Source of the DNA: Niveispirillum sp.
GTDB lineage: Bacteria > Pseudomonadota > Alphaproteobacteria > Azospirillales > Azospirillaceae
NCBI RefSeq assembly: GCF_017996735.1
Contig: NZ_JAGOGJ010000006.1
Location: forward strand, 1-46,294
DNA: 46,294 nucleotides
Direction: 5' to 3'
A program made the translations under genes and the position numbers. The notes beneath the pieces are model-generated. The model ran no database searches. It was not told the origin of the DNA and saw nothing but the letters and a program-made list of their open reading frames with translations. This document shows positions 14,903-31,780 of this stretch, piece after piece (the first letter of the stretch is position 1; every line of letters starts with the position of its first letter).

Positions 14903-15883
14903 ATGGCCCTGTCCGAACAGACACAGACCCCGCCCGACCCGCTGGCGGCCAGCCTGCTGGACCGCCATGCCCGCGCCGTCGCCCGCCGCGCCGTCTGGGA
15001 ACCGCTCTGGCGGGAATGTTATGAACATGCCCTGCCCCAGCATGCCGGCTTCGATCCCGGAGCCACGCCGGGCACGCGGCGCGGCGACCGCCTTTATGAC
15101 GCCACCGCCGCCGACGCGGTGGACCAGTTGGCGGCCTCGCTGCTGGCGCAACTGACGCCGCCCTGGTCGCGCTGGATGGGGCTGGCCCCTGGCCCGGCGC
15201 TGGATACCGAACTGGCGGCAAGCCTGTCGCCCCTGCTGCTGGAGGCTTCGGAAAGTTTCCATGCCCAGATCGATCGCTCCAACTTTGCGGTGGAGGCGCA
15301 TCAGGCTTTTTTGGATGTGGTGACGGGCGGGACCGGCTGTCTGCTGGTGGAGGAAGCCGCCCCCGGCGCCCCCTCCGCCCTGCGCTTCACCGCCGTGCCC
15401 CTGTCGGATCTGGTGCTGGAAGAGGGGGCGGAGGGCCGGCTAGACCATCTCTACCGCCGACAGCGCCTGTCCCTGGCCGAACTGGCGGCACGGGTTCCGG
15501 TGGACCGCATTCCCGAGCCGGTGAAACGCGACGGCGCCGCCGACCCCTCCCGCCGCTTCGCCATGATCGAATCGGTAATGGCGGAGGGAACGGCCTGGCG
15601 GTGGCGGCTGCTCCTGGCCGATGGCGACGAACCCGCATTGCTGGCCGAGGGCCGCTTCACCGACATGCCCTTCATCGCCTTCCGCTGGCTGAAGGCCCCC
15701 GGCGAAACCTACGGCCGCAGCCCCGTGATGAAGGCCCTGCCCGACATCAAGACCGCCAACAAGGTCGTCGAACTGGTCCTGAAAAACGCCTCCATCGCCG
15801 TCACCGGCATCTGGCAGGCTGACCAGTTATATTTTCCGGTATATTCGCGCCCTTTCCAGAATGAAGCCATCCTATTGAAATAG
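14903..15883 (+). pseudogene. podovirus-type head-tail connector (portal) gene, 5' part, split by insertion
   Basis: The first 305-306 codons match the T7-gp8-like head-to-tail connector family: LYDATAADAVDQLAASLLAQLTPPWSRWMGL near the start, HAQIDRSNFAVEAHQAFLDVVTGGTGCLLVE, and GETYGRSPVMKALPDIKTANKVVELVLKNASI near the break. At 15819 the reading frame runs into the inner element and stops after about 21 foreign codons. The rest of the gene lies 16 kb away at 31781-32369. Joining 14903-15819 to 31781-32369 gives 1506 bases, exactly 502 codons with stop, with the reading frame preserved across the 13-bp repeat. The truncated product would lack its C-terminal third and cannot form a normal portal ring. 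Confidence 0.9.
15807..15819 (+). other. attachment site, left copy (attL core)
   Basis: GCATCTGGCAGGC, identical to 31768-31780. The bases on either side differ between the copies, so the common core is exactly these 13 bp. It sits in the portal coding frame (codons for G-I-W-Q-A) and 172 bases before the integrase start, the usual position for the left end of an integrase-borne element. Confidence 0.9.
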
Positions 15884-15949
15884 CGTGGTTTTTGGCGTGA
15901 AAATCGGGCCGTTGGCAACGTGGGTAAACGACGGAATATTCCGCTTGCT

Positions 15950-15967
15950 GCTTACGTGGTGCTTACG
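15950..15967 (+). other. candidate integrase arm-type sites, left
   Basis: GCTTACG occurs at 15950-15956 and 15961-15967, 11 bp apart (one helical turn), between attL and the integrase start. The same pair with the same spacing occurs near attR. Paired direct repeats inside both ends are typical of tyrosine-integrase arm sites. Confidence 0.6.
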
Positions 15968-15991
15968 GGCTGCTTCCAAGAGGGTGGTGTG

Positions 15992-17224
15992 ATGCCGAAG
16001 ATCACGAAGAAGCTGGTGGATACCCTGGAGCCGGGGGAACGGGACATTTTCGCCTGGGATAGCGAGCTGCCGGGCTTCGGTCTGCGGCTTACTCCGGGCG
16101 GCTCCCGGACCTATCTGGTTCAGTACCGGGCTGGTGGCCGGTCCCGGCGGATGACGATTGCCCGGCATGGCGTCATGACCGCCGAAGAAGCGCGCAAGGA
16201 AGCCAGGAACATCCTGGCCGATGTAGCGCGGGGCCTGGACCCGGCGGAGAAGCGGGCGGAACAACGCCGCGACCTGACCGTCGCTGAATTGTGCGACCTG
16301 TATGTCGCCGAGGGCATGACCACGAAGAAGCCCTCCACCATCTCCACTGACAAGGGCCGGATCGAGCGGCATATCAAGCCGCTGCTGGGCAAGCGGCAAC
16401 TGCGCTCCATCACGCGGGCCGACATTGAACGGATGCAGGCAGACATTGCCGCCGGCCGGACGAAGGCGGACATCAAGGGCGGGTTCAAATCCCGCTCCAT
16501 CGTCACCGGCGGTCGGGGCGTGGCCACGCGCACCTTGGGTCTGCTGTCGGGGATATTCCAGTTCGCGGTGAACCGCTCGCTCCGGCCGGACAACCCAGTG
16601 CGGGGAGTGAAGCGGCACGCCGATAAGAAGATGGAGCGCTTCCTGTCGCCGGCGGAGATGGCGCGGCTGGGCAAGGCCCTGGCCGATCTGCTGGACGACG
16701 GCACCAACGCCCCGCCGGTGGGTGTGATCCGGCTATTGATCCTCACCGGGTGCCGGCGGGGTGAAATCACAGGCTTGCGGTGGGAGTGGGTGGATTGGGA
16801 ACGATCCTGCATCCGCTTCCCAGACTCCAAGACCGGGGCCAAGGTGGTGCCGCTGGGGACGCCAGCGCTGGAGCTGCTGGCGGAGATGAAGCCGGATCGG
16901 ACTGCCGGGCCGGTCTTCCCTGGACGCGGGCGGGATGGAACCACTACGGCCGTCTATCAGGCCTGGGAGAAGGCAAGGGAACGGGCGGGACTGCCGGGTG
17001 TCCGTATCCATGATCTCCGCCACAGCTTCGCCAGTGTGGGCGCGGCCGGCGGTGATAGCTTGGTCGTGATCGGCGCGCTGCTGGGACACCGGGACACGGG
17101 CACGACGGCGCGTTATGCGCACCTGGCCGATGATCCCCTGAAGGCAGCAGCCGACAGGATAGCGGGGAACATTGCTGCGGCTATGAGTTCCCAGATTTCC
17201 ATCTTAGCTGACAGTAAGCGTTGA
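15992..17224 (+). CDS. int: tyrosine site-specific integrase (P4/DUF4102 type)
   Basis: 410 residues from the ATG at 15992, which follows GAGGGTGGT; an upstream in-frame start at 15920 lies in the arm-site region and is less likely. Residues 1-90 are the DUF4102 arm-binding domain (LPGFGLRLTPGGSRTYLVQYR). Residues ~95-200 are the SAM-like core-binding domain. The catalytic domain follows: Arg256 in LTGCRRGEITGLRW, His340-x-x-Arg343 in HDLRHSF, His366 in LLGHRD, and nucleophile Tyr375 in ARYAHL. All key residues are intact, so the enzyme should be active. It recombines the element with the 13-bp site in the portal gene. Confidence 0.95.
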   Translation: MPKITKKLVDTLEPGERDIFAWDSELPGFGLRLTPGGSRTYLVQYRAGGRSRRMTIARHGVMTAEEARKEARNILADVARGLDPAEKRAEQRRDLTVAELCDLYVAEGMTTKKPSTISTDKGRIERHIKPLLGKRQLRSITRADIERMQADIAAGRTKADIKGGFKSRSIVTGGRGVATRTLGLLSGIFQFAVNRSLRPDNPVRGVKRHADKKMERFLSPAEMARLGKALADLLDDGTNAPPVGVIRLLILTGCRRGEITGLRWEWVDWERSCIRFPDSKTGAKVVPLGTPALELLAEMKPDRTAGPVFPGRGRDGTTTAVYQAWEKARERAGLPGVRIHDLRHSFASVGAAGGDSLVVIGALLGHRDTGTTARYAHLADDPLKAAADRIAGNIAAAMSSQISILADSKR

Positions 17225-17310
17225 TCGAATTCCATTGCATGACTACACCTATTTGATAGAGAAATAACTCTGGCACATGATATTAAGCGCATGATGTAAG
17301 GAATATTATT

Positions 17311-18285
17311 ATGCCATACGACGATAATGCGGTGCAAAAACCAAATGAAATAGTATTCATAGGCAGTTGGGCCTCTGATGAAGATTTTTCCATTCACCCA
17401 AAAGGCTCTCAGCCGAAGTCCACTGTTGTATGTCCGGACCCTGCCCCATTTGACTTTCTCATTCCAGGCCATCAGTACATATTTAAAACTTCGAAGAAGA
17501 AATGGCAAGAAATTCAACTTTGGTCGGAAGTTATATCATACAGGATATCCAAGATAGCCGGGATAAACGCACCCCCTTGCCACGTCGCTGTTAACGAAAA
17601 CACGGGTGAGGTTGGTGTTCTCATGGAATTTTTCTTCGGATACCCATTGGAGGCCGAGCCTCAGCGTTTTATTCATGCATCAGAATACTTAGCGCGCTTG
17701 CTATCCGATAGAAAACGAGGTCGCCCTCATGAGCTGAGAACGAATCTTCGATTCTGTCGGGCCCTTAAACTTCCCGATCCAGAAATTTGGTGGGCTCAAA
17801 TCTTGGCATTTGATGCGTTGATTGGAAATACAGACCGACACCCTGAAAACTGGGGATTTCTGGTGAATCAATGCACGGACGGAACACAGTCATTTCGATT
17901 CGCCCCGGCATTCGATAACGGGACCAGCTTGGGATACGAGCAGTCAGAAGATAAGTTGGGGGCTCTGTGTGAAAACGCGTCGCTATCGAGGTATGTGTCG
18001 AGGGGAACCCATCATTGCGGATGGAACGCTTCTGAAGATGGACCGTTACCCCATATGTCGCTCTGCGCAAAATACATCTCTGCCTATCCGCGCACTAGCG
18101 CGGAGATGCGAAATGTGATTCGATTCGAAAGGGGGCAGATCACCGCAATCTGTGACGAGTGCGCTGAGTTTGATGTGGGCGTTCGGTTCACGCCGGCTAG
18201 AGCGAGATTTGTTGCAGCGCTTGTCGAGGCTCGTAGGGCTGCACTTGCGGAGATTCTGGGAGGGTACAATGGCGAATTGGATTGA
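17311..18285 (+). CDS. HipA-like (CtkA/HipA_C-type) serine/threonine kinase
   Basis: 324 residues. Kinase signatures of the HipA/CtkA fold are present: Lys59 in QYIFKTS (ATP-binding lysine), Glu73 in LWSEVISYRI, Asp175 and Asn180 in GNTDRHPEN (catalytic loop) and Asp202 in APAFDNGTS (metal-binding). There is no N-terminal HipA subdomain-1 of full length, so it is closer to the shorter CtkA-like proteins. In known systems such kinases are toxins that phosphorylate translation factors or regulators. It is AT-richer than the rest of the element and overlaps the HIRAN gene by 17 bases, indicating a transferred two-gene cargo. No HipB-like antitoxin precedes it. Target and trigger unknown. Confidence 0.82.
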   Translation: MPYDDNAVQKPNEIVFIGSWASDEDFSIHPKGSQPKSTVVCPDPAPFDFLIPGHQYIFKTSKKKWQEIQLWSEVISYRISKIAGINAPPCHVAVNENTGEVGVLMEFFFGYPLEAEPQRFIHASEYLARLLSDRKRGRPHELRTNLRFCRALKLPDPEIWWAQILAFDALIGNTDRHPENWGFLVNQCTDGTQSFRFAPAFDNGTSLGYEQSEDKLGALCENASLSRYVSRGTHHCGWNASEDGPLPHMSLCAKYISAYPRTSAEMRNVIRFERGQITAICDECAEFDVGVRFTPARARFVAALVEARRAALAEILGGYNGELD

Positions 18286-19018
18286 GCGTGTTTCCGAACC
18301 GCCAAAGCTTTTCCTGGCTTGGCAGGCGCCGGATCATTTACAGTATCGCTTCAGGTGGGCTGTGGGCATTATCGCTCCGCATTCTGACGGGCTGTCTTTG
18401 CGCTACTTTGAAGATGGCGTCGAGTTTGAACAGCATAACCAAGGTCAAACGTATGCGAAGCTGCTGAGTTATGGGTACAAGGGATATCCTGCGTTCAGCA
18501 CGAAGCGCCTGCTCCACACTTCCGGTGTCGCCGATGTACTTGTTAGGAGGCTTCCCCCTAGCACTCGACCAGATTTTTCCGAATACAAGAAGCAGTTTCG
18601 AATTCCTTCGGAAATGAACTTGCCTCTTATATCTCTTCTTGGCTCCACCGAAGCAAAGCTTCCTAGTGACGGCTTCTCTGTGGTCGACCCACTGGATTCT
18701 AACGCGCAATACTGCGATTTAATGTTGGAGATCGCTGGATTCCGATATTATTCGGACACTTATACCCCAACAATCAATGAGCGTATTGAGGTCCTTGCCG
18801 AACCCGACAATCGATATGATGCTGGGGCCGTTAAGATATGTGCTGGTGGCAAGAAGATTGGGAATATTAATCGGCTTCAAGCGCCAACTTTTCTAAGCTG
18901 GATTAATAGTCGGAGCATAGAAGGAAATATCGAACGGCTTAATGGAAAGCCGACGAGTCCGAGGGCGTTTATTTTTGTTCGCGTTAGGCCAGCTGTGGCT
19001 ACGCTAGCTGCTGAATGA
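18269..19018 (+). CDS. HIRAN-domain protein, partner of the HipA-like kinase
   Basis: 249 residues from the ATG at 18269 with AGGG four bases upstream; it starts inside the end of the kinase gene. Residues ~150-240 are a HIRAN domain: IEVLAEPDNRYDAGAVKI carries the conserved E-P-x-N-x-Y-D pattern and GGKKIGNINRLQA the following strand. HIRAN domains bind DNA ends or stalled forks. Residues ~10-140 (YRFRWAVGIIA, YGYKGYPAFSTKRLLHTSGVADVLVRRLPPSTRPDF, LISLLGSTEAKLPSDGF) resemble the part that accompanies HipA-type proteins, perhaps the missing N-terminal subdomain in trans. As a pair with the kinase it may sense DNA damage or invading DNA; antitoxin function is inference. Confidence 0.75.
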   Translation: MANWIERVSEPPKLFLAWQAPDHLQYRFRWAVGIIAPHSDGLSLRYFEDGVEFEQHNQGQTYAKLLSYGYKGYPAFSTKRLLHTSGVADVLVRRLPPSTRPDFSEYKKQFRIPSEMNLPLISLLGSTEAKLPSDGFSVVDPLDSNAQYCDLMLEIAGFRYYSDTYTPTINERIEVLAEPDNRYDAGAVKICAGGKKIGNINRLQAPTFLSWINSRSIEGNIERLNGKPTSPRAFIFVRVRPAVATLAAE

Positions 19019-19101
19019 AGATGTCAGAATCCATTTTGGCTGCTTGACGAAAGCGAACAAACATGGAACAAGTTGGGCGTCAACGCCCGAAGTGTGTGAA
19101 G

Positions 19102-19130
19102 CCCGCCCGGTTATGCCGTGGCGGGTTTTT
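19102..19130 (+). terminator. Rho-independent terminator after the kinase/HIRAN pair
   Basis: CCCGCC at 19102-19107 pairs with GGCGGG at 19120-19125, followed by TTTTT. It ends the cargo transcript and lies across the 3' end of the convergent XRE gene. Confidence 0.75.
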
Positions 19131-19374
19131 CTTTGTCTGTGCGGCGGAGCCGGACGCCCGGCCCTTCGCCGTTCTCTTGGATGAAGATTACGCCGGCCGC
19201 TTCAAGGGCGGTGCGAATGGCTGTGAGGGTGCTTTGTCGGGCAGCACCTTCTTCAAGTTCAATTCGCGCAACGGTGCGTTCGGTGGTTCCCGCCTGATTG
19301 GCAAGTTCCTCCCGTGACCAGTTAACGAGGCCGCGCGCTGCTCTAAGCTGGGCAGGGGTAATTGCATCTTTCAT
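19111..19374 (-). CDS. small XRE-family regulator of the satellite
   Basis: 87 residues from the ATG at 19374; the open frame goes far upstream, but there it only mirrors the plus-strand gene. Residues 5-60 are a helix-turn-helix (TPAQLRAARGLVNWSREELANQAGTTERTVARIELEEG) and the tail holds LRTALEAAGVIFIQENGEGPGVRLRR, the typical ending of prophage helix-turn-helix proteins of this small class. Its start codon lies inside a 15-bp inverted repeat, so it probably represses its own expression and the divergent early genes, making it the likely master switch of the element. Confidence 0.8.
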   Translation of the reverse strand: MKDAITPAQLRAARGLVNWSREELANQAGTTERTVARIELEEGAARQSTLTAIRTALEAAGVIFIQENGEGPGVRLRRTDKEKPATA

Positions 19375-19406
19375 GAAATACACCGTTGCGAATTTCATGA
19401 AAGATG
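19365..19406. promoter_or_regulatory. divergent operator: 15-bp perfect inverted repeat
   Basis: CATCTTTCATGAAAT (19365-19379) and its exact complement ATTTCATGAAAGATG (19392-19406) flank a 12-base spacer. Each arm contains the self-complementary 10-mer TTTCATGAAA; centres are 24 bp apart. The left arm overlaps the start codon of the XRE gene. This is the expected target of that regulator. Confidence 0.8.
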
Positions 19407-19498
19407 ACATATCTTCTGCAAGTACACAAGCGGCCGGGCAGAGAGTTCGCACCTCCCTACCCGGCCTAACCACAACCGACCTTTCACGGAGGCGCGGC

Positions 19499-19906
19499 AT
19501 GGCTACTGCCGTCCATAGCACGACTTTGCCCGGATCGCCCATTGTCCACCTGCTGAGCCAGGCCAGCAGGGCTGATATCGAGGCGGCCATAGAAGCCCTT
19601 ATCGCTCGTCTGGATAGTCTGGACGGTGACCCGGACCTTGAACCGGAAACGGACGGCTGTGATGCCCATGATGATATCGGCACCAGCAGCGCCTTTTCCC
19701 GGCTGCTGGGTGATGATGGGCGGCCAAGGGATGCCGACGATACCGAAGAGGATAACGAGGACATGTGCCCGGCGGGTGACCATGGTGGGCGGTTGACGCC
19801 GCGCGCCTATCGCCCGCCGATTCTCATCCTGGCACGACCGGACCAGCCGGAGGGCAATGGTCAATGGGTGATGGTCACCCGGACGGGTGAGGTGGTGTCA
19901 TGCTGA
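19499..19906 (+). CDS. satellite early protein, acidic, unknown
   Basis: 135 residues from the ATG at 19499 with CGGAGG six bases upstream; earlier in-frame ATGs at 19373 and 19397 lie within the operator and lack a ribosome site. A helical segment (VHLLSQASRADIEAAIEALIARLDSL) is followed by a strongly acidic stretch (residues ~55-95) and a short folded end (PPILILARP, GQWVMVTRTGEVV). First rightward gene after the switch. No family recognised; the next gene overlaps its stop. Confidence 0.6.
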   Translation: MATAVHSTTLPGSPIVHLLSQASRADIEAAIEALIARLDSLDGDPDLEPETDGCDAHDDIGTSSAFSRLLGDDGRPRDADDTEEDNEDMCPAGDHGGRLTPRAYRPPILILARPDQPEGNGQWVMVTRTGEVVSC

Positions 19907-20316
19907 CCCGCCGCCACGCCCTTTCCGTCGTCGCCAGTGCCGCGCTGGTGCCTCCGGCTGCATCGGCGACCATCCACCCCGATGCTACCCTGTTGCAACT
20001 CGGGGATCAGTTCGAAGCCGAATGGGCCAAAGAGCGGGAGTTGTGGGCCGCTTCCCATCTTCACCCCTCGCCCGACGTCATCGGCAACGCCATCGCGGAG
20101 CAAGCTGAAGGCCAGAGCGACCGAACCGGCGAACTGGTGAAGCGGATTGTCAACATGCCGGCTCGGACATTGGAAGGCATCCGCATCAAAGCTCGTGCCA
20201 TCGCCTGGACTCACAGCGAGGAGCCCGTCGAAATGGACACGTTTGGCGAGACTACCGACTGTCGGCTGGTCGCCAGCATTTTGATGGATCTGGAGCGTTT
20301 TTCATCCACCGCATAG
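19900..20316 (+). CDS. satellite hypothetical protein with export-signal-like N-terminus
   Basis: 138 residues; the ATG at 19900 lies in the last codons of the previous gene. Residues 1-23 (MLTRRHALSVVASAALVPPAASA) have twin arginines, a hydrophobic core and an A-x-A end, like a Tat-type signal. The body is helical and charged (LLQLGDQFEAEWAKERELWA, IAEQAEGQSDRTGELVKRIVNMPARTLEGIRIKARAI). Similar proteins occur in alphaproteobacterial prophage early regions without known function. Whether the signal is used is not known. Confidence 0.6.
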   Translation: MLTRRHALSVVASAALVPPAASATIHPDATLLQLGDQFEAEWAKERELWAASHLHPSPDVIGNAIAEQAEGQSDRTGELVKRIVNMPARTLEGIRIKARAIAWTHSEEPVEMDTFGETTDCRLVASILMDLERFSSTA

Positions 20317-20373
20317 GTGATTTTGCCCCCTTATTTTGTGGGAGCAAAATCACCTCTTGAAATTATCAAGAGG
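20315..20373 (+). promoter_or_regulatory. two consecutive hairpins in the leader of the MerR-like gene
   Basis: AGGTGATTTTGC (20315-20326) pairs perfectly with GCAAAATCACCT (20344-20355); after one mismatch three more base pairs close the loop. CCTCTTGA (20353-20360) then pairs with TCAAGAGG (20366-20373). The two stems share three bases (20353-20355), so they compete slightly. No T-tract follows, so this is not a standard terminator; an operator or RNA-level control is possible. Confidence 0.6.
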
Positions 20374-20414
20374 CTGCTGTACCTCTGGTTAATGCCAAGA
20401 GGAAAGGAGTTCCC

Positions 20415-20882
20415 ATGATCCCCCCCAAGTTGACCACCGTGGCCGCCTGCCGTGTGGCCCGCATCGACCGTGACCGCTTCAATGAGCATGTGGCCGCCGG
20501 CCGCTTCACCTGCGCCCCAAATACCATTCCCGGCCGCGCACGTCTGTTCGATCCTAACGATATGATCGGACTGTGGCTGTTTCGGGAGTTGATGGATGAT
20601 GGCTTCGAGGCCGCGCGGGCTGGCAGGATTGCGTGTGAAGTCGCAGATGCCGCGCGGCGGCATCCCGAGACGCGCGCGATTTCCTATGTGGAGGATTACT
20701 TCGTCCCTCCCAGCGGTTCGGCTTTCCCTGCTGACCAAGTGCCCGCAGCTTCTGAATGGCACAAGGTGACTTTCAGCGGAACCGACATTCGTAAGGTCAC
20801 CACGTTCAATGTCGGCAAGCTGCGTGAGTTGATCGCGCACTACACCGAGGAAGAGCGTTCCATCATAGGCGAACGCGAATAA
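20415..20882 (+). CDS. MerR-like helix-turn-helix protein of the satellite
   Basis: 155 residues, with a strong GGAAAGGAG ribosome site. Residues ~5-75 look like a winged helix-turn-helix of MerR type: KLTTVAACRVARIDRDRFNEHVAAGRFTCAP, RARLFDPNDMIGLWLFRELMDDGF. The remainder has YVEDYFVPP and a helical end. It probably regulates element genes or directs excision. Preceded by the double hairpin leader. Specific target unknown. Confidence 0.6.
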   Translation: MIPPKLTTVAACRVARIDRDRFNEHVAAGRFTCAPNTIPGRARLFDPNDMIGLWLFRELMDDGFEAARAGRIACEVADAARRHPETRAISYVEDYFVPPSGSAFPADQVPAASEWHKVTFSGTDIRKVTTFNVGKLRELIAHYTEEERSIIGERE

Positions 20883-20934
20883 TCCAGCAGGCAGGGAGCA
20901 TGGCTTCCTGCCTTTAACCGAAAGGCCATTTTAG

Positions 20935-21611: not shown

Positions 21612-21632
21612 TATCGCTGGAGGAAGTCACCC

Positions 21633-22049
21633 ATGGGCGCCCTCTCGCCCTCCATCACCACGAAGCTGGCCAAGATGCTGCCCATGCTCGCGTCGGATCG
21701 GGATGGGGAGGTCGTGGCCACGGCTGCGGCTATCGGACGGGTGCTAGCCGGTGCCGGTGCGTCTTGGCACGACGTGGCCGCCTTGCTGTCTCTTCCTCCC
21801 GCTCAACGGCCCGCCACGGCCGAGCGACAAGCATCCTCCATGGCCTTCAGCTTCATTCACCTGAGCCCGGAAGGCGCCCGACGCAGGGTCGCCGAGTTGC
21901 TGGCGGGGAGCGGCTGGAACGACTGGGAGCGCCGCTTCCTCACCGATATGGAAAACCTGCTTCGGGGCAAGGCGCGAAACCCGTTGTCCTGCAAACAAGC
22001 CCAGCTTCTAACGGATCTGTACTGCCGTCATTGGGGTGTGAAACCGTGA
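21633..22049 (+). CDS. satellite replication-region hypothetical protein
   Basis: 138 residues with GGAGGAA upstream. The start LSPSITTKLAKMLPMLASDRDGEVVATAAAIGRVLAGAGASWHDVAALL is a pattern I associate with small proteins before replication genes in alphaproteobacterial prophages; the end has GWNDWERRFLTDMENLL and LSCKQAQLLTDLYCRHWGV. Its last codon overlaps the GTG start of the replication initiator, so the two are probably translated together. Biochemical role unknown. Confidence 0.65.
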   Translation: MGALSPSITTKLAKMLPMLASDRDGEVVATAAAIGRVLAGAGASWHDVAALLSLPPAQRPATAERQASSMAFSFIHLSPEGARRRVAELLAGSGWNDWERRFLTDMENLLRGKARNPLSCKQAQLLTDLYCRHWGVKP

Positions 22050-22882
22050 GCTATCGTTTGATCGACATGGCCTGGAAAGCCCGTGGCATCCAAACCACGG
22101 CCAAGACCGTCCTTGTCCGACTATGCGGCTTTGCTGATGACGATGGCGGCAATGTTTTTCCGGGCCTGCGTCGGGTTGCTGACGACTGCGGCCTGTCGGA
22201 AAGGGCTGTACGAGAACAATTTCGCCATCTGGAAGAAATCGGGCTTTTGGCTCTGGTGGAAGAGGGTGATCCCCGTTCCCATCGTCCGCGCACCTACCGG
22301 GTGGTGGTTGAGCGTTTGGAGACTATGAACGCTTCCCCACCCCCTGGGGAACAAGGTGCCCCAGCCCCCGGCACCACATGCCCCACCCTGGGGCATGATG
22401 TTCCCCACCCTGGGGCGCCAGATGCCCCACCCCCCGGCACCACGTGCCCCAGCCCTGGGGCGCCACGTGCCCCCAAAAAGTCAGTAAGAAAAATCATAGA
22501 AAGATCAGCAGGGGATTCCGTCATATCGCAGGCTGTGAACGATCAGTCCCAGGGAGACGACCCCGAAAAGCGTTTTGAGGAGCTCTGGGCCGCCTACCCG
22601 TCCAGGGGGGACAACCCCAATCCACGCAAACCGGCCCGAGAGAAGTTCCTCAAGCTGGTGAAGGCCGGCACCGCCCCCGACGAGATTATCCGGGGCGCGC
22701 TGGGCTATGCCGCCGCGATGAAGCGCAAGCAACAGGCACCTGAATACATCCAGCAGGCGGTGACTTGGCTGAACCAAGCGGGGTGGCAGCAGTACGCCAG
22801 CCCCCAGGCCAATGCCCCGCCGCATGCCGCCCGCCGCCAAGCCGCCGCAGAATCTGTCTTCGATCTGGTGAACACCCAATGA
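22046..22882 (+). CDS. replication initiator-like protein (phage O-type) with winged HTH
   Basis: 278 residues from a GTG at 22046 that overlaps the preceding TGA; the frame is open further upstream but mirrors the previous gene there. Residues ~1-90 are a winged helix-turn-helix (WKARGIQTTAKTVLVRLCGFADDDGGNVFPGLRRVADDCGLSERAVREQFRHLEEIGLL), as in phage replication proteins. Residues ~95-145 are a Pro/Gly-rich linker encoded by a palindrome cluster, the likely origin. The C-terminal ~90 residues (FEELWAAYPSRGDNPNPRKPAREKFLKLVKAG) match the domain common in such initiators. It should bind the origin and load the helicase encoded next door, as lambda O does with DnaB. Confidence 0.75.
   Translation: MSYRLIDMAWKARGIQTTAKTVLVRLCGFADDDGGNVFPGLRRVADDCGLSERAVREQFRHLEEIGLLALVEEGDPRSHRPRTYRVVVERLETMNASPPPGEQGAPAPGTTCPTLGHDVPHPGAPDAPPPGTTCPSPGAPRAPKKSVRKIIERSAGDSVISQAVNDQSQGDDPEKRFEELWAAYPSRGDNPNPRKPAREKFLKLVKAGTAPDEIIRGALGYAAAMKRKQQAPEYIQQAVTWLNQAGWQQYASPQANAPPHAARRQAAAESVFDLVNTQ
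22333..22461. other. candidate replication origin: cluster of CCCCA-TGGGG palindromes inside the initiator gene
   Basis: Inverted repeats lie at 22333-22351 (TTCCCC/GGGGAA), 22355-22375 (GGTGCC/GGCACC), 22380-22394 (GCCCCA/TGGGGC), 22403-22415 (CCCCA/TGGGG), and 22446-22461 (GCCCC/GGGGC), with a partial one at 22423-22440. Together they form an iteron-like cluster of about 130 bp. Lambdoid phages keep their origin inside the initiator gene in just this position. Confidence 0.5.
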
Positions 22883-24174
22883 ACATCTCCGCCCCAACCG
22901 ATCTGATCACCCTCCCCGCCATCCAGGCTCTGGTGGACCGGAACTGGAGCCAGGAAACCGAACTAATGGTTCTGGCCGCGGCGCTGAACCTGCCCCATGG
23001 CTTCGCGTTGACGGTTGGGCACTGCGATGCCGGCGACTTCTTCGACCCGATCCATGCGGCACTATTCACCGAGATCGCGGATCGCCGCACCCAAGGGCGG
23101 GCGGTTGACGCGGCCCTGTTGCGGGAGCTGGCGGAGAGGATGGAAGCTGAAGGACAAGCGGGGGTACGGGATCTGCTGCGGCATCTCACGGGCACGCTGG
23201 TCCTCGCAGCCAATGTCACCGGCTATGCGGAAGATCTGCGCAATCTTGCCCGTCGGCGCCGGTTGATGGAGGTGACGTTGACAGCCTGCCAGCGCGCAGA
23301 CCGAGCGGAGAACATCGACGACCTGGTATCCGCCACCATCGCGGAAGTGGAGGGGTTGGTGGGTGGCGGCAAGGCGCGACACCGATTCGAGGTGCTGCGC
23401 CAGGTGGTCAGTGGCTTGGAGCGGCCGGGCGCGATCTTCTCCACCGGCCTGCCGTCGCTGGACAGGGTCATGGGAGGCGGTTTGGAGGTTGGTCGGTTCT
23501 ACGCCATCGCAGGCCGCGGCAAAGCCGGCAAGAGCCTGCTGGCAGGCACGATCAGCCATCACTTGAACCGCCGAGGCGTGAAGCACGCCTATGCCGCCCT
23601 GGAGATGGGAGCGGCGGAGATCGAGACACGGAAGATCGCCCATGACCTGGGCACCAACAGCCTCGCCCTGCGTGGGCAGGTTGGGGCGGCATTGCTGGGC
23701 AAGGTCGGCACCTATGCCGCAGAGGCTCCCGACCACATGATCTATATCGACATGCCCGGCGGGACGATGCAGCAGCTCCGGGCCGAGGTGATGGCGGCAC
23801 GTCACAAGCATCGTTGCACCGGCATCATCATCGACTACTGGCAACTGGTTGGCGGCCGGGATCGGGCGGTATCAGAGGAAGAGCATCTGCGCATCGTTGC
23901 CCAATGGCTGGCCGCCGCAGCGAAGCGGCTGGGCATCTGGGTGTTGGTGCTGGCACAGCTTGCCGACGATGGGGAGGCGCCCGCCGTCTGCCGTACCGGC
24001 TTGAACCGGAATGCCGACCAGCTCTTCTTCATCCGAGGCGAGGCTGACAGTCCCGATCGCTGGCTGGAGATGAAGCTGAGCCGGTTCACGCCGGTGGCCG
24101 ATATCGGCGGGCCGGATGCCCCGGCTTTCCGCATCGAGGGACCGGGCCCGTTCTTCCGTGATCTGGCCGCATAG
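22879..24174 (+). CDS. DnaB-like replicative helicase of the satellite
   Basis: 431 residues; ATG overlaps the initiator's stop. Residues ~10-110 resemble the DnaB N-terminal helical domain. The RecA-like domain begins near 180 with STGLPSLDRVMGGGLEVGRFYAIAGRGKAGKSLLA (Walker A, GRGKAGKS at ~209-216). GIIIDYWQLVGG gives Walker B, and a later LGIWVLVLAQL is the sensor strand. It unwinds DNA at the origin and completes a self-contained initiator-helicase pair, so the element does not depend on the host's initiator. Confidence 0.85.
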   Translation: MNISAPTDLITLPAIQALVDRNWSQETELMVLAAALNLPHGFALTVGHCDAGDFFDPIHAALFTEIADRRTQGRAVDAALLRELAERMEAEGQAGVRDLLRHLTGTLVLAANVTGYAEDLRNLARRRRLMEVTLTACQRADRAENIDDLVSATIAEVEGLVGGGKARHRFEVLRQVVSGLERPGAIFSTGLPSLDRVMGGGLEVGRFYAIAGRGKAGKSLLAGTISHHLNRRGVKHAYAALEMGAAEIETRKIAHDLGTNSLALRGQVGAALLGKVGTYAAEAPDHMIYIDMPGGTMQQLRAEVMAARHKHRCTGIIIDYWQLVGGRDRAVSEEEHLRIVAQWLAAAAKRLGIWVLVLAQLADDGEAPAVCRTGLNRNADQLFFIRGEADSPDRWLEMKLSRFTPVADIGGPDAPAFRIEGPGPFFRDLAA

Positions 24175-24295
24175 TCATTCCCAGTAAGTGTAAGTAAACA
24201 CCCGAAAAACTAACTTCTCTCACCAACGTCGAAGACGTTGAAGTTCTCTCTTCGTTCCGCCCAGGGTGATCCGTTATTCCCGTGAGGGTTTTCGG

Positions 24296-27140: not shown

Positions 27141-27151
27141 GGAAGCATCCC

Positions 27152-27577
27152 ATGCGCGACCTGATGAACAACATCCATCCCGTCCGGGCCATTTCCCCGG
27201 CGGCGGCCGTCACCGACAACACGCCCTTCGTGTCGCAGGTGATCGATACGCTGGGCTTCAACAGCCTGACCTTCGTGATCCTCACCGGGGCGCTGGCCGA
27301 TGCCGACGCCACCTTCACGGCGCTGCTGGAACACGGCGATGCATCGGACCTGTCCGATGCGGCGACCGTCCCGGATGACCTGCTGATCGGCACCGAGGCG
27401 CTGGCGAGCTTCACCTTCGCTGACGACAACGAAACCCGGAAGCTGGGCTATGCCGGCGGCAAGCGTTACGCGCGCCTCACCGTCACGCCGGCCGGCAACA
27501 GCGGTAACGCCTTCGTGGCGGCCGTCGCCTTGCTGGGCCATCCCAACCGCGCCCCCACCGCCAACCCGCCCACCTGA
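27152..27577 (+). CDS. head-associated structural protein (unnamed family)
   Basis: 141 residues with GGAAGC upstream, 11 bases after the capsid stop. The sequence MRDLMNNIHPVRAISPAAAVTDNTPFVSQVIDTLGFNSLTFVILTGAL is a pattern seen right after HK97-type capsid genes in alphaproteobacterial elements. Beta-rich, no signal, no catalytic motif. Its place suggests a capsid decoration or head fibre protein; this is not proven. Confidence 0.65.
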   Translation: MRDLMNNIHPVRAISPAAAVTDNTPFVSQVIDTLGFNSLTFVILTGALADADATFTALLEHGDASDLSDAATVPDDLLIGTEALASFTFADDNETRKLGYAGGKRYARLTVTPAGNSGNAFVAAVALLGHPNRAPTANPPT

Positions 27578-27590
27578 TCGGAAGGTCGGA

Positions 27591-28211
27591 ATGCTGACCA
27601 TCATCACCCCGGCGGAAAGCCAGAGACTGACCACCTTGGCCGCGATCAAGGATGAACTGCGGATGACCGCCGGGGCCGATGATGCTTTCCTGCTGACCCT
27701 GATTGACCAGGCAAGCGGGGCCGTGCGGCGCTGGTGCAACCGCACCTTTGCCGCCGAAACCGTGCGGGAGACGTTCCGCCTGTCCACCCTCACCGACAGC
27801 CTGATGCTGTCGCGCTGGCCGGTAGGCGCCGTGCTGTCCGTCACCCTGGCCGGGGCGACGCTGGGCGAAGCCGGGTATGAGGTGGAGGGGGCAACGGGCC
27901 TGCTTTATCGCCTTACCGACTCAGATGAACGCTTGCCGTGGCCGCCTGGCAAGATCGTGGTGGAATATGTCGCCGGCTTCGTTTTGCCCGGCAACCCTGG
28001 CCGCAGCCTGCCTGACGACATTGAACGGGCCGCCATCCTGCTGGTGAAGGCGGCATGGTTCAGCCGCAACCGTGATCCGCTGATCAAGACGGAAGAGGTC
28101 GACGGCATCGGCGCCAATTCCTATTGGGTGGGCGGGTTCAGCGACGGGGCCACCTTGCCGCCCGATGTACAGGGCCTGCTTTCCGCCTATCGTCAACCCG
28201 CCATTGGATGA
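27591..28211 (+). CDS. phage head-tail connector (gp6-like adaptor)
   Basis: 206 residues from the ATG at 27591 with GGAAGG upstream. LAAIKDELRMTAGADDAFLLTLIDQASGAVRRWCNRTF is the signature N-terminal helical pair of gp6-like adaptor proteins (the LKxxLR-x-D-DxLL-x-IxxA pattern), and IVVEYVAGF followed by IERAAILLVKAAWFSR is the typical second half. Such proteins sit below the portal as a 12- or 13-mer ring and accept the tail. It supports that the capsids are built to take a tail from another phage. Confidence 0.85.
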   Translation: MLTIITPAESQRLTTLAAIKDELRMTAGADDAFLLTLIDQASGAVRRWCNRTFAAETVRETFRLSTLTDSLMLSRWPVGAVLSVTLAGATLGEAGYEVEGATGLLYRLTDSDERLPWPPGKIVVEYVAGFVLPGNPGRSLPDDIERAAILLVKAAWFSRNRDPLIKTEEVDGIGANSYWVGGFSDGATLPPDVQGLLSAYRQPAIG

Positions 28212-28215
28212 CACC

Positions 28216-28623
28216 ATGTTGAACCCAGGCACCTATGCGCTGGCCGACAAGCCCGTCACCACCGCCGCCAACGAAGCGCAAGCCCCGATCACAGATCTTG
28301 AGGGCATGACCGCCGCAACGATCCAAGCCCGGTTCGCCTACGGCACCGGCGGCACGTCCGCCAAGGTCTATGTCGCCACCAGCCTGGACGGCGGCACCAC
28401 CTGGGTGGATATCGCCTGCTTCGCCTTCACCACCGCCGGCGGGGTGAAGGTGGTGAATGTGTCAGGCCTGACACCACGGACAGCCCCCATCGCGCCAACC
28501 GACGGCGCGCTTGCCGACGACACGACGGTTGATGGTGTGCTTGGCGACCGGCTGCGCGCCCGGATCGTGACCACCGGCACATACGCCAACAGCCTGTTGA
28601 CCGTCCGGGCGGTGGTGCGATGA
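28216..28623 (+). CDS. satellite structural protein, beta-rich, unknown
   Basis: 135 residues, ATG four bases after the adaptor stop. Alternating strands (ATIQARFAYGTGGTSAKVYVATSLDGGTTWVDIACFAF, RLRARIVTTGTYANSLLTVRAVVR) give it the look of a small beta-barrel or immunoglobulin-like structural protein. Possibly a head decoration or stopper protein; no family assigned. Its stop overlaps the next start. Confidence 0.6.
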   Translation: MLNPGTYALADKPVTTAANEAQAPITDLEGMTAATIQARFAYGTGGTSAKVYVATSLDGGTTWVDIACFAFTTAGGVKVVNVSGLTPRTAPIAPTDGALADDTTVDGVLGDRLRARIVTTGTYANSLLTVRAVVR

Positions 28624-28991
28624 ACCGGGAAATCGCCACCTTGGACCGTATGCTTGCCGTGGCCGGGGAATCCATCGTGCTGATGCGTCAATTCGGCACG
28701 ACGCCCAACAGCTTCGCCAGCGTCGAATGCCTGGCCTTCGTGCGCGGCTATCGGCCGGAAGAGCTGATCGGCAGCATCTCGCAGACCGACAGCTTCGTCG
28801 TCATCTCTCCCACGGAAATCAACCGGGCGAAATGGCCCGGTGGTTCCGGCTTGCTATCGGCCACGGATGCCCGCATCCCCCGCAAAGGGGACAGGGTCAT
28901 GATCCGGGGCCTTCAGCGCAATGTCGAGTCTGCTGGGCCGATCTATGTCCGCGGCGCTTTGGTCCGTATCGACATGCGCGTGTTGGGGTAA
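28620..28991 (+). CDS. head-completion-like protein
   Basis: 123 residues, ATG overlapping the preceding stop. Beta-rich with ESIVLMRQFG, SVECLAFVRGYRPEELIGSISQTDSFVVISPTEINRAKWPGG and PRKGDRVMIRGLQRNVESAGPIYVRGALVRIDMRVLG. This strand pattern resembles small head-tail joining or stopper proteins that follow gp6-like adaptors, with the PxxGDxvxxxG motif common to them. Assigned mainly from order and fold appearance. Confidence 0.6.
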   Translation: MNREIATLDRMLAVAGESIVLMRQFGTTPNSFASVECLAFVRGYRPEELIGSISQTDSFVVISPTEINRAKWPGGSGLLSATDARIPRKGDRVMIRGLQRNVESAGPIYVRGALVRIDMRVLG

Positions 28992-28994
28992 GCC

Positions 28995-29327
28995 ATGCCA
29001 TTCGCTCCGCCCCGTTCCTGCAAATGCGGCGCCCTGGTCCCCGCCGGCCAGCGGTGCCCGCGATGTGCCAAGGCCGCCGACATTGCCCGCGGTTCCGCCC
29101 GCCAACGCGGCTATGACCGGGATTGGGAGAGTGTACGGGCGGCATTCCTGGAACGCCATCCGACGTGCTGTGCCCCCGGCTGCGATCAGCCGGCCACGGA
29201 CGCGGACCATATCCAGACCGTGAAGGAGGCCCCGCACCGCCGGCTTGATCCCACCAACCTGCGCCCCTTTTGCCACCGGCACCATTCCCAGCGGACGCGC
29301 CGCGACCAGGGAGGGCCACGGGGATAG
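28995..29327 (+). CDS. HNH endonuclease
   Basis: 110 residues. An N-terminal zinc pair region (CKCGALVPAGQRCPRC) is followed by CCAPGCDQPATDADHIQTVKEAP and TNLRPFCHRHHSQRT. This is the phage HNH pattern: DADH with the metal-binding His, LRPFCHRHHSQRT as the second half. Phage HNH proteins beside TerS/TerL nick DNA to help genome packaging at cos sites, so cos-type packaging is likely here. Confidence 0.9.
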   Translation: MPFAPPRSCKCGALVPAGQRCPRCAKAADIARGSARQRGYDRDWESVRAAFLERHPTCCAPGCDQPATDADHIQTVKEAPHRRLDPTNLRPFCHRHHSQRTRRDQGGPRG

Positions 29328-29423
29328 GGGTTCCAGAGTTTCCAACCCGAGGGGGCCGGGACCGTTGGGGGGTCTTGCGCGCACTCACCTTGAAATTGGG
29401 GATTTTCCCGAAAGGGCTTTCAG

Positions 29424-29834
29424 ATGAAGGGTCGAAAACCGAATTTGCGGGTGATTGAAGGGGGTGCCGCCACGGGCCGCTGTCCCTCTCCCCCGACCTG
29501 GCTTTCCGTTCACGCCAAGCGGGAATGGAAACGCTGCGCTCCTGAACTGCATCGCCGGCGGCTGCTGACTGCCGACACGTTGGCAACGCTGGAAAGCTAC
29601 TGTGTCGCCGCCGGCCAGGTGCGGGAGTTTGAAGAGCTGATGGCCACCGACGGCCGGATGATTTCCGGGGAGGACGGGCCCAAGCCGCACCCGGCTTTCA
29701 AGATGCAACAGGCGGCAATGCGGGAATGCCGGCTGCTGGCGGCCGAACTGGCATTGACGCCACAGCGACAGGGCACCAGGGGCAAAACGGACGAAGGAAA
29801 AGGCGATGGCTGGGATTCTGACCTTCTCGCCTGA
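29424..29834 (+). CDS. terminase small subunit, P27 family
   Basis: 136 residues. MKGRKPNLRVIEGG at the start is typical for the P27 small terminase family (cf. KGRKP...L..lrG). The helical body KREWKRCAPELHRRRLLTADTLATLESYCVAAGQVREFEELM and KMQQAAMRECRLLAAELALTPQRQ matches the family's oligomer-forming region. TerS recognises the packaging site and loads TerL. A satellite carrying its own TerS directs packaging of its own DNA rather than that of a helper. It overlaps TerL by 29 bases. The 96 bases upstream after the HNH gene hold no visible feature and could include the cos site. Confidence 0.88.
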   Translation: MKGRKPNLRVIEGGAATGRCPSPPTWLSVHAKREWKRCAPELHRRRLLTADTLATLESYCVAAGQVREFEELMATDGRMISGEDGPKPHPAFKMQQAAMRECRLLAAELALTPQRQGTRGKTDEGKGDGWDSDLLA

Positions 29835-31419
29835 TCCGGAGCTTTACCCTGATCCGACCGGCCGTGCCGACCGGATGTGCCGCTTCGTCAACAAGCTCCG
29901 GCTATGGGAAGGAAGGTTCGCAGGCAAGCCGTTCCATCTGCATGATTTCCAACGGTCATTGGTCCGCCGCATCTATGGCCCGACCACGGACGACGGGCGC
30001 CGTCTGGTGCGCATGGCCTGCATCTGGATACCCCGCGGCAATGCCAAGACGACGCTCGCGTCGGCGCTGGCCCTGGCTCATTTCCTGGGACCGGAAGCCG
30101 AAGCGGGCGGACAGGTGATCCAAGCCGCAGCCGACCGGGAGAATGCCGGCATCGCCTTCAAGCACAGCTTCGAGATGGTGAAGCAGGATGACGCCCTGTT
30201 GCGCCGCGTGGCACCAATCGAAAGCCGGAAGGTGCTGAACCACACGAAGACCAGTTCCATCCTGAAGGCTATCTCGTCCGAGGCATACAGCAAGCACGGC
30301 ATGAACGCCTCGTTCTTCCTGGCGGATGAGGTGCATTCCTGGCCGCTGGCGGAGGGCCGGAAGCTGTTCAAGGTGGTGACGGACAGCATGGTGAAGCGAG
30401 AACAGCCACTGACCATCGTCATTTCCACCGCCGGGGAAGGTCAAGGCGGGCTCGCCTTCGACCTCTGGTCCTATTCGCTGGCCGTAGCGCGGGGCGAAGT
30501 GAACGATCCGACCTTCGCGCCCATCATCTTCGCCGCCGACCCGGAAGCGGATTGGCGCGATGAAGCGGCCTGGCACGCGGCAAACCCGGCCATCGCCGCC
30601 GGCTTTTGCAGCCTGGAGGAATTGCGCATCAAGGCCCGCCGCATCGAGCATTTCCCGGCGGAGATTGCCGACTTCCGCCGCTTCCATCTGAACCAGTGGC
30701 AGGAAGGGGCCGCAAACCCCTGGATGGATCTGGCCACCTATGACCAAGCCGCGGCGATGACCGCCCCCGATGACTTGATCGGCCGGCCCTGCTGGATTGG
30801 TGTTGACCTGTCGAGCGTGGAAGATTTGACGGCCGTGGCCGCAGTCTTCCCCTCTGGCGATGGCGACACCCGCACCTATGACGTGATCGCCACCTTCTTC
30901 CTGCCGGAAGCCGCCTTGGCCCGGAAGGCGGATCGTGACCAGGCGGATTATCTGCGTTGGCGGGACGCTGGGCACCTGAAGGTGACAGAGGGCAACCGCA
31001 TCGATTACGACGCGGTGATCGCCCACGTCGTAGAGCTGGCGGAACGGTATGCCGTCCAGGAAGTTGCCATTGATCGATGGAACTCCACGGCTGTCACCAC
31101 GGCATTGCAGCGGGAGGAAATCACCGTCGCCACCTTCGGCCAGGGCTTCGCCAGCATGGCCGCCCCCGTGCGGGAGTTGAAGCGGGCCATCCTTGGCGGT
31201 GAGTTCCGCCATGGAGATAACCCGGTCCTGCGCATGTGCTTTGGCAACGTGGTGGCAGAGAAGGACGCGGCGGAGAACGAGAAATTCACCAAGGAGAAGG
31301 CCCGCGGCCGCATTGATGGCGCGGTTGCCGCCGCCATGGCTATCGGCCGGATCCTGGCCAGCGAAGACACTGGTTCCGTCTATGAGGCCGCCCGGCCTGA
31401 AGGCTTCCTATTCGTTTGA
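29806..31419 (+). CDS. terminase large subunit (Terminase_1 type)
   Basis: 537 residues. ATPase motifs: Walker A PRGNAKTT (residues 76-83), Walker B with Asp174-Glu175 in FFLADEVHSW, coupling segment ISTAGEG. The nuclease half starts with Asp335 in WIGVDLSSVEDLTAV, with further acidic residues in EVAIDRWNST and KARGRIDGAVAAAMA. All expected residues are intact. It pumps DNA into the prohead through the portal and cuts it. Last large gene of the element; only one small gene separates it from attR. Confidence 0.93.
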   Translation: MAGILTFSPDPELYPDPTGRADRMCRFVNKLRLWEGRFAGKPFHLHDFQRSLVRRIYGPTTDDGRRLVRMACIWIPRGNAKTTLASALALAHFLGPEAEAGGQVIQAAADRENAGIAFKHSFEMVKQDDALLRRVAPIESRKVLNHTKTSSILKAISSEAYSKHGMNASFFLADEVHSWPLAEGRKLFKVVTDSMVKREQPLTIVISTAGEGQGGLAFDLWSYSLAVARGEVNDPTFAPIIFAADPEADWRDEAAWHAANPAIAAGFCSLEELRIKARRIEHFPAEIADFRRFHLNQWQEGAANPWMDLATYDQAAAMTAPDDLIGRPCWIGVDLSSVEDLTAVAAVFPSGDGDTRTYDVIATFFLPEAALARKADRDQADYLRWRDAGHLKVTEGNRIDYDAVIAHVVELAERYAVQEVAIDRWNSTAVTTALQREEITVATFGQGFASMAAPVRELKRAILGGEFRHGDNPVLRMCFGNVVAEKDAAENEKFTKEKARGRIDGAVAAAMAIGRILASEDTGSVYEAARPEGFLFV

Positions 31420-31426
31420 GGACACC

Positions 31427-31687
31427 ATGCGCCTGGATGTTATCCGAATCGACCGCCGCCACGACAATTCAGCCTGTATCGCTGTCGTGGCCGTTGCCAT
31501 CCCGAAAGCCGGTGTCGAGGTCCGCGGCATTCGGATAATCAGACGTGATGACGGCAGCGTCTACGCGAACATGCCCCACCAACGCGACCATCTTGGAGCA
31601 TGGTATCCCACCGTCCGGTTCATGAAGCCGGGCACAGTTGATGCCATCAAACGCGCTGCTGTGGAGGCTGTTTGCGGCCCGCAGTGA
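31427..31687 (+). CDS. small protein at the right end of the satellite (SpoVG-like appearance)
   Basis: 86 residues, ATG seven bases after the TerL stop. VIRIDRRHDNSACIAVVAVAIPKAGVEVRGIRIIRRDDGSVYANMP followed by WYPTVRFMKPGT resembles the compact beta-sheet of SpoVG-type nucleic-acid-binding proteins (strand, 'RIIRRDDG', 'MP'). The match is weak. Its role could be DNA binding near attR or accessory recombination. Confidence 0.5.
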   Translation: MRLDVIRIDRRHDNSACIAVVAVAIPKAGVEVRGIRIIRRDDGSVYANMPHQRDHLGAWYPTVRFMKPGTVDAIKRAAVEAVCGPQ

Positions 31688-31690
31688 GTT

Positions 31691-31708
31691 GCTTACGCCA
31701 CGCTTACG
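31691..31708 (+). other. candidate integrase arm-type sites, right
   Basis: GCTTACG at 31691-31697 and 31702-31708, 11 bp apart, the same motif, orientation and spacing as at the left end (15950-15967). They lie 60 bases inside attR. Confidence 0.6.
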
Positions 31709-31767
31709 GCAAACCATGCCATCCCACCAAGAGCATGAAAAGCAAGGGCAATGCCAAATTGTCCCTA

Positions 31768-31780
31768 GCATCTGGCAGGC
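31768..31780 (+). other. attachment site, right copy (attR core)
   Basis: GCATCTGGCAGGC, identical to the left copy. The following bases resume the portal frame at codon 306 (G-C-G for Ala, then Asp-Asp-Asp-Gly). Confidence 0.9.

What the first reader, a model, noticed from the sequence alone, without database searches (positions are those of the whole stretch)
15807..31780. A 16-kb capsid-forming phage satellite (cf-PICI-like) in an alphaproteobacterium
Between two 13-bp direct repeats lies a compact element with integrase, switch, initiator plus helicase, HK97 portal, fused protease-capsid, adaptor, HNH, TerS and TerL, but no tail and no lysis gene. Only 80 bases separate the last gene from attR, so a tail module is not merely out of view. 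This is the defining content of capsid-forming phage-inducible islands, which build and fill their own heads and take tails from a helper. The structural genes come before HNH-TerS-TerL, an order unlike the one I would expect for the described enterobacterial members. I do not know this element from memory.
Basis: partly seen in the sequence, partly recalled or inferred. Interest (0 to 1): 0.93.

Follow-up and report, generated by a model that had tools for sequence, protein, structure and literature searches.

The report
Phage satellite lodged in portal gene
A 16-kb piece of bacterial DNA carries genes for its own virus head but no recognised tail genes, so it likely borrows a helper phage's tail to spread, and it sits at one exact spot inside the portal gene of a widely inherited set of virus-particle genes, cutting that gene in two, which would switch the set off.

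Summary
Bases 15807-31780 are an integrated element (15,961 bp core to core) with integrase, repressor-like gene, initiator plus DnaB, HK97-type portal, fused protease-capsid, connectors, HNH, TerS and TerL, and no recognised tail or lysis gene. Relatives speak against a deleted prophage: seven elements with this integrase are 15.1-16.9 kb, and siblings at tRNA genes are 14.9-18.4 kb.

Joining the flanks gives one unbroken 501-codon portal, gapless against an intact relative. All seven distinct elements found with this integrase sit at this codon, with two unrelated head modules (HK97-type, lambda-type) behind one integrase.

The interrupted gene does not look like part of an ordinary prophage. 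In the window's family (82 genomes) portal, capsid and TerL of this podovirus-type set are all present in 67, all absent in 14; the portal is under purifying selection; in the window's own genome the set lies in two loci. I read it as gene-transfer-agent-like. Other mobile elements have entered its capsid gene too.

Verdict: a capsid-forming satellite, new variant of a known kind, with a virion gene of a GTA-like set as attachment site. Excision, packaging, helper and any effect on gene transfer are inferred.

The parts
13081..13815 (-). S24 peptidase-like repressor beside the interrupted portal, syntenic in relatives
   Evidence: PF00717; conserved next to the portal in relatives
14903..15883 (+). 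N-terminal half of the podovirus-type portal, truncated by the element (portal sequence ends at the core, 15807-15819)
   Evidence: PF12236 positions 3-302, phrog_332
15807..15819 (+). attL core GCATCTGGCAGGC
15920..17224 (+). tyrosine integrase (conserved start MPKITKK lies at about 15992)
   Evidence: PF00589; 76-77% identical in four same-site relatives
15950..15966 (+). arm-type repeat GCTTAC-N5-GCTTAC, left end
17311..18285 (+). HipA-like protein, PADLOC PDC-M03A (candidate defence cargo)
   Evidence: PF07804, PADLOC
18269..19018 (+). HIRAN-domain protein, PADLOC PDC-M03B
   Evidence: PF08797; PADLOC on the longer ORF 18152-19018
19111..19374 (-). HTH_3 repressor-like gene, divergent from the early genes
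   Evidence: PF01381
19499..22049 (+). six small early genes (19499-19906, 19900-20316, 20415-20882, 20935-21228, 21231-21611, 21633-22049)
   Evidence: no accepted Pfam match (19900-20316 scanned only against PADLOC); 20935-21228 is found in most relatives compared
22046..22882 (+). replication initiator, O-like
   Evidence: HTH_36, phrog_270 and others
22337..22473 (+). six imperfect repeats of about 22 bp inside the initiator gene, possible origin
   Evidence: function inferred
22765..24174 (+). DnaB-type helicase (ATG at about 22879)
   Evidence: PF03796, PF00772
24266..25519 (+). HK97-type portal
   Evidence: PF04860
25422..27140 (+). fused prohead protease and major capsid protein
   Evidence: PF04586 and PF05065
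27152..27577 (+). head-associated protein of unknown function
   Evidence: phrog_5707
27450..28211 (+). head-tail connector (gp6-like)
   Evidence: PF05135, phrog_442 head-tail adaptor
28165..28623 (+). all-beta protein, perhaps a decoration protein; weak fold likeness to tail-tip and fibre domains leaves its role open
28620..28991 (+). probable head-closure protein
   Evidence: 31% over 88 residues to a protein after the connector of prophage C106; inferred
28995..29327 (+). HNH endonuclease
   Evidence: phrog_144
29424..29834 (+). TerS
   Evidence: PF05119
29806..31419 (+). TerL
   Evidence: PF03354, PF20441
31427..31687 (+). 86-aa ORF, last gene of the element
   Evidence: only matches below the curated cut-offs
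31691..31707 (+). arm-type repeat, right end
31768..31780 (+). attR core
31768..32369 (+). C-terminal half of the podovirus-type portal
   Evidence: PF12236 positions 296-487
32642..33379 (+). T7-type capsid assembly (scaffold) protein of the interrupted set
   Evidence: PF05396; conserved beside the portal in relatives

Best explanation
The element is an integrated phage satellite that carries its own head and DNA-packaging genes and no recognised tail gene, so it likely takes tails from a helper phage, and it sits inside and splits the portal gene of a conserved podovirus-type set that is probably gene-transfer-agent-like. Shown by sequence: att cores and arm repeats, the split portal, the unbroken site in relatives, the same codon in all seven distinct elements found with this integrase, their 15-17 kb size, and the exchange of head and terminase modules. 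Inferred: when the HTH repressor is relieved by a helper (a siphovirus like the prophage on contig C106 is a candidate), the integrase cuts the element out, the initiator and DnaB copy it from an origin probably inside the initiator gene, HNH, TerS and TerL fill its HK97-type heads, and helper tails dock on its connectors. While integrated it would block particle formation by the host's podovirus-type set; precise excision would restore the portal.
For: Gene content. Flanks joined at the core give one 501-codon portal, gapless over 500 residues with the intact portal of G008, 89.6%. Seven of seven distinct elements with an integrase of 73% or more sit at this core. Element lengths 15.1-16.9 kb. 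Siblings with other integrases lie at repeats matching tRNA genes, 14.9-18.4 kb. Lambda-type head module behind the same integrase in two elements. Resident siphovirus-type prophage with tape measure and minor tail protein on C106, whose connector matches the element's at 33%.
Against: No excision, packaging, induction or helper use was or could be observed. The protein of 28165-28623 has weak fold likeness to tail-tip and fibre domains (best PDB match: phage lambda tail tip complex, E 1.4e-4, TM-score 0.33). The distant sibling G039 carries head-closure, Neck1 and tail-terminator genes after terL. Pfam gave no AlpA match for the small conserved early gene. The element was not placed in a tree with published cf-PICIs. 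The GTA reading rests on conservation alone.
Confidence: 0.82

Rival explanations
1. It is a defective siphovirus prophage that lost its tail and lysis genes by deletion.
For: Its head genes are related to those of full phages, below 60% identity in all 957 phage records matched, and its host carries a related siphovirus-type prophage.
Against: Seven same-site elements of 15.1-16.9 kb, siblings of similar size at tRNA genes, and relatives on short contigs all end shortly after the terminase; two of the seven have an unrelated head module and again no tail module.
Confidence: 0.07
2. It is a satellite, but its tail donor is the host's podovirus-type set itself: excision restores the portal and re-activates that set, whose tail parts then serve the satellite.
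For: The own genome keeps MCP, tail tubular A and B, a fibre-like gene and TerL of that set on contig C250 (the tail names rest on likeness to the other clusters).
Against: The element's connectors are of the HK97/siphovirus kind and match prophage C106. A sibling (G039, tRNA-Pro) lives in a genome without the set.
Confidence: 0.06
3. It is a satellite, but the portal gene is only a conserved, dispensable landing place, and its interruption has no effect that matters to either side.
For: The gene is found in 67 of 82 family genomes and the set is lost altogether in 14, so it is dispensable; prophages use its capsid gene too; many elements use conserved genes as sites (general knowledge).
Against: The portal is under purifying selection (dN/dS 0.00-0.36 in 22 pairs), and the insertion removes its C-terminal 194 codons rather than remaking the gene end.
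Confidence: 0.45

Closest known systems
Capsid-forming PICIs (cf-PICIs)
   Same: Integrase, replication genes, portal, protease, capsid, connectors, HNH, TerS and TerL, no tail genes; 16 kb against a reported mean of 14 kb (PMC10690885, PMC10803314, passages read).
   Different: Alphaproteobacterial (PMC10803314 lists mainly Enterobacteriaceae, Pasteurella, Morganellaceae and Gram-positives, though PMC10690885 calls them widely distributed); protease and capsid fused; attachment site inside a portal gene; two elements with this integrase have a lambda-type head. Gene order was not compared with published members.
Streptomyces satellites MulchRoom and MiniFlayer
   Same: Satellites that encode capsid and packaging genes (PMC10690885, passages read).
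   Different: Reported there to use virulent helpers and to have direct terminal repeats; MiniFlayer has lost integration. Ours is integrated with att sites.
cf-PISP satellite-plasmids of Vibrio
   Same: Capsid-forming, tail-less, 15.8 kb (PMC13230959, passages read).
   Different: Episomal and without an integrase; ours is chromosomal.
Alphaproteobacterial gene transfer agents (RcGTA, BaGTA), for the interrupted set
   Same: Conserved by descent, virion genes without replication genes seen, scattered over loci.
   Different: BaGTA has an HK97-type capsid (PMC9662315, passages read), as has RcGTA by recall; this set has a PF12236 portal and a PF19821 capsid. No particle is known to be made by it.

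Membership tests
cf-PICI | Own capsid, protease, portal and head-tail connector genes | tested here: met
cf-PICI | Own TerS, TerL and HNH | tested here: met
cf-PICI | No tail genes | tested here: met
   No tail family in Pfam for the genes scanned or in PHROGs for those scanned there; the 28165-28623 protein stays open
cf-PICI | Integrated at defined att sites by an integrase, about 14 kb | tested here: met
   15,961 bp, cores and empty site
cf-PICI | Stl- or AlpA-type regulator | tested here: inconclusive
   HTH_3 repressor-like gene found; no AlpA match
cf-PICI | Capsid in the clade of published cf-PICIs | not tested
   No published cf-PICI set was used for comparison
cf-PICI | Induced by a helper phage and moved with its tails | not testable with these tools
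   Needs experiment
Gene transfer agent (the interrupted set) | Single-copy, co-inherited, maintained by selection | tested here: met
   All or none of portal, capsid, TerL in 81 of 82 family genomes; dN/dS 0.00-0.36 in 22 portal pairs
Gene transfer agent (the interrupted set) | Complete head, tail and packaging genes without replication or integration genes | tested here: inconclusive
   Portal, scaffold, capsid, tail-like genes, TerL seen; no replication gene noticed in the ORF lists read, which were not scanned gene by gene
Gene transfer agent (the interrupted set) | Packages and transfers random host DNA | not testable with these tools
   Needs experiment

The most novel reading that the evidence does not exclude
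A satellite lineage has specialised on a third, podovirus-type gene transfer agent of Alphaproteobacteria: its integrase uses the agent's portal gene as a reversible off-switch, disarming the host's own particle system while the satellite is resident and re-arming it on excision, and whole head modules are swapped behind this one switch.
Probability: 0.38. Interest if true: 0.93.

Novelty: new variant of a known kind. Interest (0 to 1): 0.82.

Why it matters
It brings capsid-forming satellites into Azospirillum and its relatives with an attachment site that is a virion gene of a second, resident particle system. That makes it directly testable whether mobile elements switch off gene-transfer-agent-like systems. 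It shows two unrelated head modules moving behind one integrase. And it points to a conserved podovirus-type virion set in Alphaproteobacteria; none of the papers listed in the searches on this point showed in title or abstract start that it is known, and the passages read do not mention it.

Tried and rejected
Deleted prophage: set aside on relatives (see rivals). tRNA attachment site in the window: none found. Rfam features in 15000-32500: none at gathering scores. TerL of the podovirus-type set: a pelagiphage TerL found only a separate podovirus-like prophage on contig C81, and PF03237 gave hits in 3 of 11 genomes; the right one came from IMG/VR records. Shared descent of the G050 and G078 insertions as proof of frequent excision: not usable, their elements are mosaic. 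Repeat arrays in other initiators: my exact 10-mer test found none, but it also missed the window's own imperfect array, so it says nothing. Salmonella phage As1 record as a satellite yardstick: it is a tailed-phage fragment with terminase first. G055 portal interruption: a 46-kb island, no clear repeat, other position. G061: its second repeat copy is 5.9 kb away from the tRNA-Ser gene, so its right end is less certain; G079 and G069 lie near tRNA genes but no repeat was found; G077 gave neither. A lead not followed: particles with random host DNA of about 10 kb from A. lipoferum and strain B510 (PMC3899980, one section read); which genes make them is unsettled.
Full report
1. Observation. The element runs from a 13-bp core at 15807 to its copy at 31768 (15,961 bp core to core). 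The core occurs nowhere else in the window on either strand. Just inside each end lies GCTTAC-N5-GCTTAC (15950 and 31691), found in none of 100 shuffles, as integrase arm sites would be. Additions: an HTH_3 repressor-like gene on the minus strand at 19111-19374; a PADLOC candidate defence pair, PDC-M03A/B, at 17311-19018 in a stretch of 49% G+C against 62% for the whole element; six repeats of about 22 bp at 22337-22473 inside the initiator gene, a possible origin. No tRNA gene in the window and no Rfam match in 15000-32500. The last ORF ends 80 bases before the right core.

2. Where it sits. The flanks are the two halves of a podovirus-type portal: PF12236 positions 3-302 on the left and 296-487 on the right (phrog_332). 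Joined at the core they give one ORF of 501 codons, which matches the intact portal of G008 over 500 residues without a gap at 89.6%. The exact 13-mer is in 17 of the 19 site stretches fetched for comparison; of the other two, G064 differs by one base and the left G055 stretch lacks the codon. It is also in 38 of the 51 IMG/VR records (of 80 returned) whose portal spans the codon.

3. The site goes with the integrase. In 82 family genomes five integrases, the window's own included, are 76% or more identical to it; these five genomes have the portals split at this codon. The next best, 54-55% (G030, G043, G051), lie on other contigs than the portals of their genomes, which are unbroken. A scan of genome contigs gave 10 loci: four at 75-77%, the same four genomes, here named Azospirillum griseum, Azospirillum cavernae, an Azospirillum MAG and Roseomonas genomospecies 6, each with the portal half upstream; and six at 25-44% without it. 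An IMG/VR scan gave six: five at 74-79%, of which three appear to repeat those genomes and two (L126, L127) are new; four of the five have the portal half upstream and the fifth begins at the integrase; the sixth (38%) has none. So seven distinct elements, seven at this codon.

4. They look like satellites. Lengths, cores included: 15,974 (window), 16,231, 15,613, 16,889, 15,056, 15,582 and 15,744 bp. Five carry the HK97-type head. Two, in A. cavernae (G021) and L127 (G195), carry another: GpA-type TerL (PF05876, PF20454), lambda-type portal (PF05136), a capsid PF25209 with a long N-terminal part, and cement protein PF09956 (Pfam on the G195 proteins; G021 is 77% identical in nucleotides over 3.8 kb). 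In neither ORF list did I see a tail module. TerL moves on its own as well: the window's is 86% identical to those of G061 and G070, whose integrases are 23-25% identical to its own, but 41-42% to that of G050, whose integrase is 76% identical. Siblings with other integrases lie at repeats that match tRNA-Ser (G070, G044, and G061 with a less certain right end), tRNA-Leu (G045, G076) or tRNA-Pro (G039), 14.9-18.4 kb long. Except in G039 terL ends within about 1.1 kb of the right repeat. In G039 4 kb follow, with head-closure, Neck1 and tail-terminator families and no tail tube or tape measure among the five proteins scanned; G069 has a similar but unscanned stretch. That is the one result that softens the word tail-less for the wider family. 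IMG/VR relatives of the fused capsid (18 loci; 16 compared) mostly share the order portal, protease-capsid, HNH, TerS, TerL where the contig is long enough. The fused protein has 452 relatives among 7,995 scored candidates; many of the 120 listed are on contigs of 13-17 kb, with names such as Azospirillum, Rhodobacter, Sphingomonas and Methylocystis.

5. What is interrupted. Portal, capsid (PF19821) and a TerL-like protein of one podovirus-type set were searched in 194 related genomes: 97, 91 and 88 have matches (cut-offs 1e-3, 1e-20 and 1e-30; the portal count includes distant phage-like hits outside the family). Within the 82 family genomes, counted from those lists, 67 have all three, 14 none, and one (G014, fragmented) two. 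In several genera the genes stand close together: portal, scaffold, capsid, tail-tubular-like and fibre-like genes, TerL (the tail names rest on order and likeness, Pfam gave no match for three of them). In the window's own genome portal and scaffold lie here and capsid to TerL on contig C250:13515-21820. dN/dS between portals is 0.00-0.36 in 22 pairs; the highest is the window's own copy against G001 (0.36; the intact pair G008-G001 gives 0.29), the other split copies do not stand out, and both halves stay open, so insertion is recent or often reversed. Portal identity to the window follows that of the coaBC protein over 71 genomes, Spearman 0.65 (genomes without a value for both were left out, and identity to one reference is a coarse test). 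IMG/VR holds at least 600 stretches with this capsid; of the 80 returned, 17 are records of 12.0-13.5 kb and the longest is 36.5 kb, shorter or little longer than a full T7-like phage. I read this as a GTA-like set. That it makes particles or moves DNA is not shown. BaGTA has an HK97-type capsid (PMC9662315, passages), so this would be another kind.

6. Other insertions in the same set. The capsid gene is split by a 38.7-kb insert in G064 (19-bp repeat, an integrase-like ORF beside the junction, phage-like genes) and by a 43.5-kb insert in G043 that has a 2085-aa ORF of tape-measure length; G096 has its two capsid parts on two contigs with a 14-bp repeat; record L169 shows breaks at the capsid start and in tail tubular B, the latter beside an integrase-like ORF. 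These inserts were read from ORF lists, not scanned against families.

7. How it likely works. Inferred throughout: a helper relieves the repressor, the integrase excises at the core, initiator and DnaB replicate the circle, own heads are filled, helper tails dock on the connector. The helper is probably a siphovirus: the resident prophage on contig C106 has TerL-, portal- and capsid-like genes, a tape measure and a minor tail protein, a connector 33% identical to the element's, a following protein 31% identical, and a shared early gene 58% identical over 133 residues. While resident the element truncates the host portal and would stop the podovirus-type set. Whether this matters to either side is open: I give about even odds to a plain landing place (third rival; it shares the satellite claim, so the odds overlap).

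8. Comparison and novelty. cf-PICIs encode capsid, protease, portal, connectors, terminases and HNH and depend on a helper for tails (PMC10690885, passages); they average 14 kb and are given as mainly from Enterobacteriaceae, other Gammaproteobacteria and Gram-positives (PMC10803314, passages), though PMC10690885 calls them widely distributed. The element meets each content feature tested. The phage order in one record is terminase first, then portal, protease, capsid, tail; here the terminase comes last. A narrow five-term search for satellites attached in a portal gene returned 0 papers; the other satellite searches showed nothing of the kind in titles and abstract starts. The founding cf-PICI paper was not in those lists and is known to me by citation and recall only.

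Noticed in passing
17311-19018: HipA-like and HIRAN-domain gene pair, PADLOC candidate defence system PDC-M03A/B, in a low-G+C stretch of the element.
   Followed up: partly
L127/L132 (G195) and L093/L094 (G021): Elements with the same integrase and site but a lambda-type head module instead of the HK97-type one.
   Followed up: partly
L152-L154 (G064), L155-L157 (G043), L161/L162 (G096), L169: Inserts, two of them 38.7 and 43.5 kb and phage-like, split the capsid gene (and in L169 tail tubular B) of the same podovirus-type set.
   Followed up: partly
L163 (G000:C250:13515-21820): The rest of the podovirus-type set in the window's own genome: capsid, tail-like genes, fibre-like gene, TerL, between host genes.
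   Followed up: partly
L042/L043 (G000:C106): Siphovirus-type prophage with a 2146-aa tape measure, on a 21.8-kb contig; candidate helper; shares an early gene with the element.
   Followed up: partly
L147, L148 (G000:C81): A separate podovirus-like prophage with a distant portal (27%) and a pelagiphage-like TerL (37-38%) in the same genome.
   Followed up: no
L095, L158, L159, L096 (G055): A 46-kb island without clear repeat splits the same portal gene at another position.
   Followed up: partly
22337-22473: Six imperfect G+C-rich repeats of about 22 bp inside the initiator gene.
   Followed up: partly
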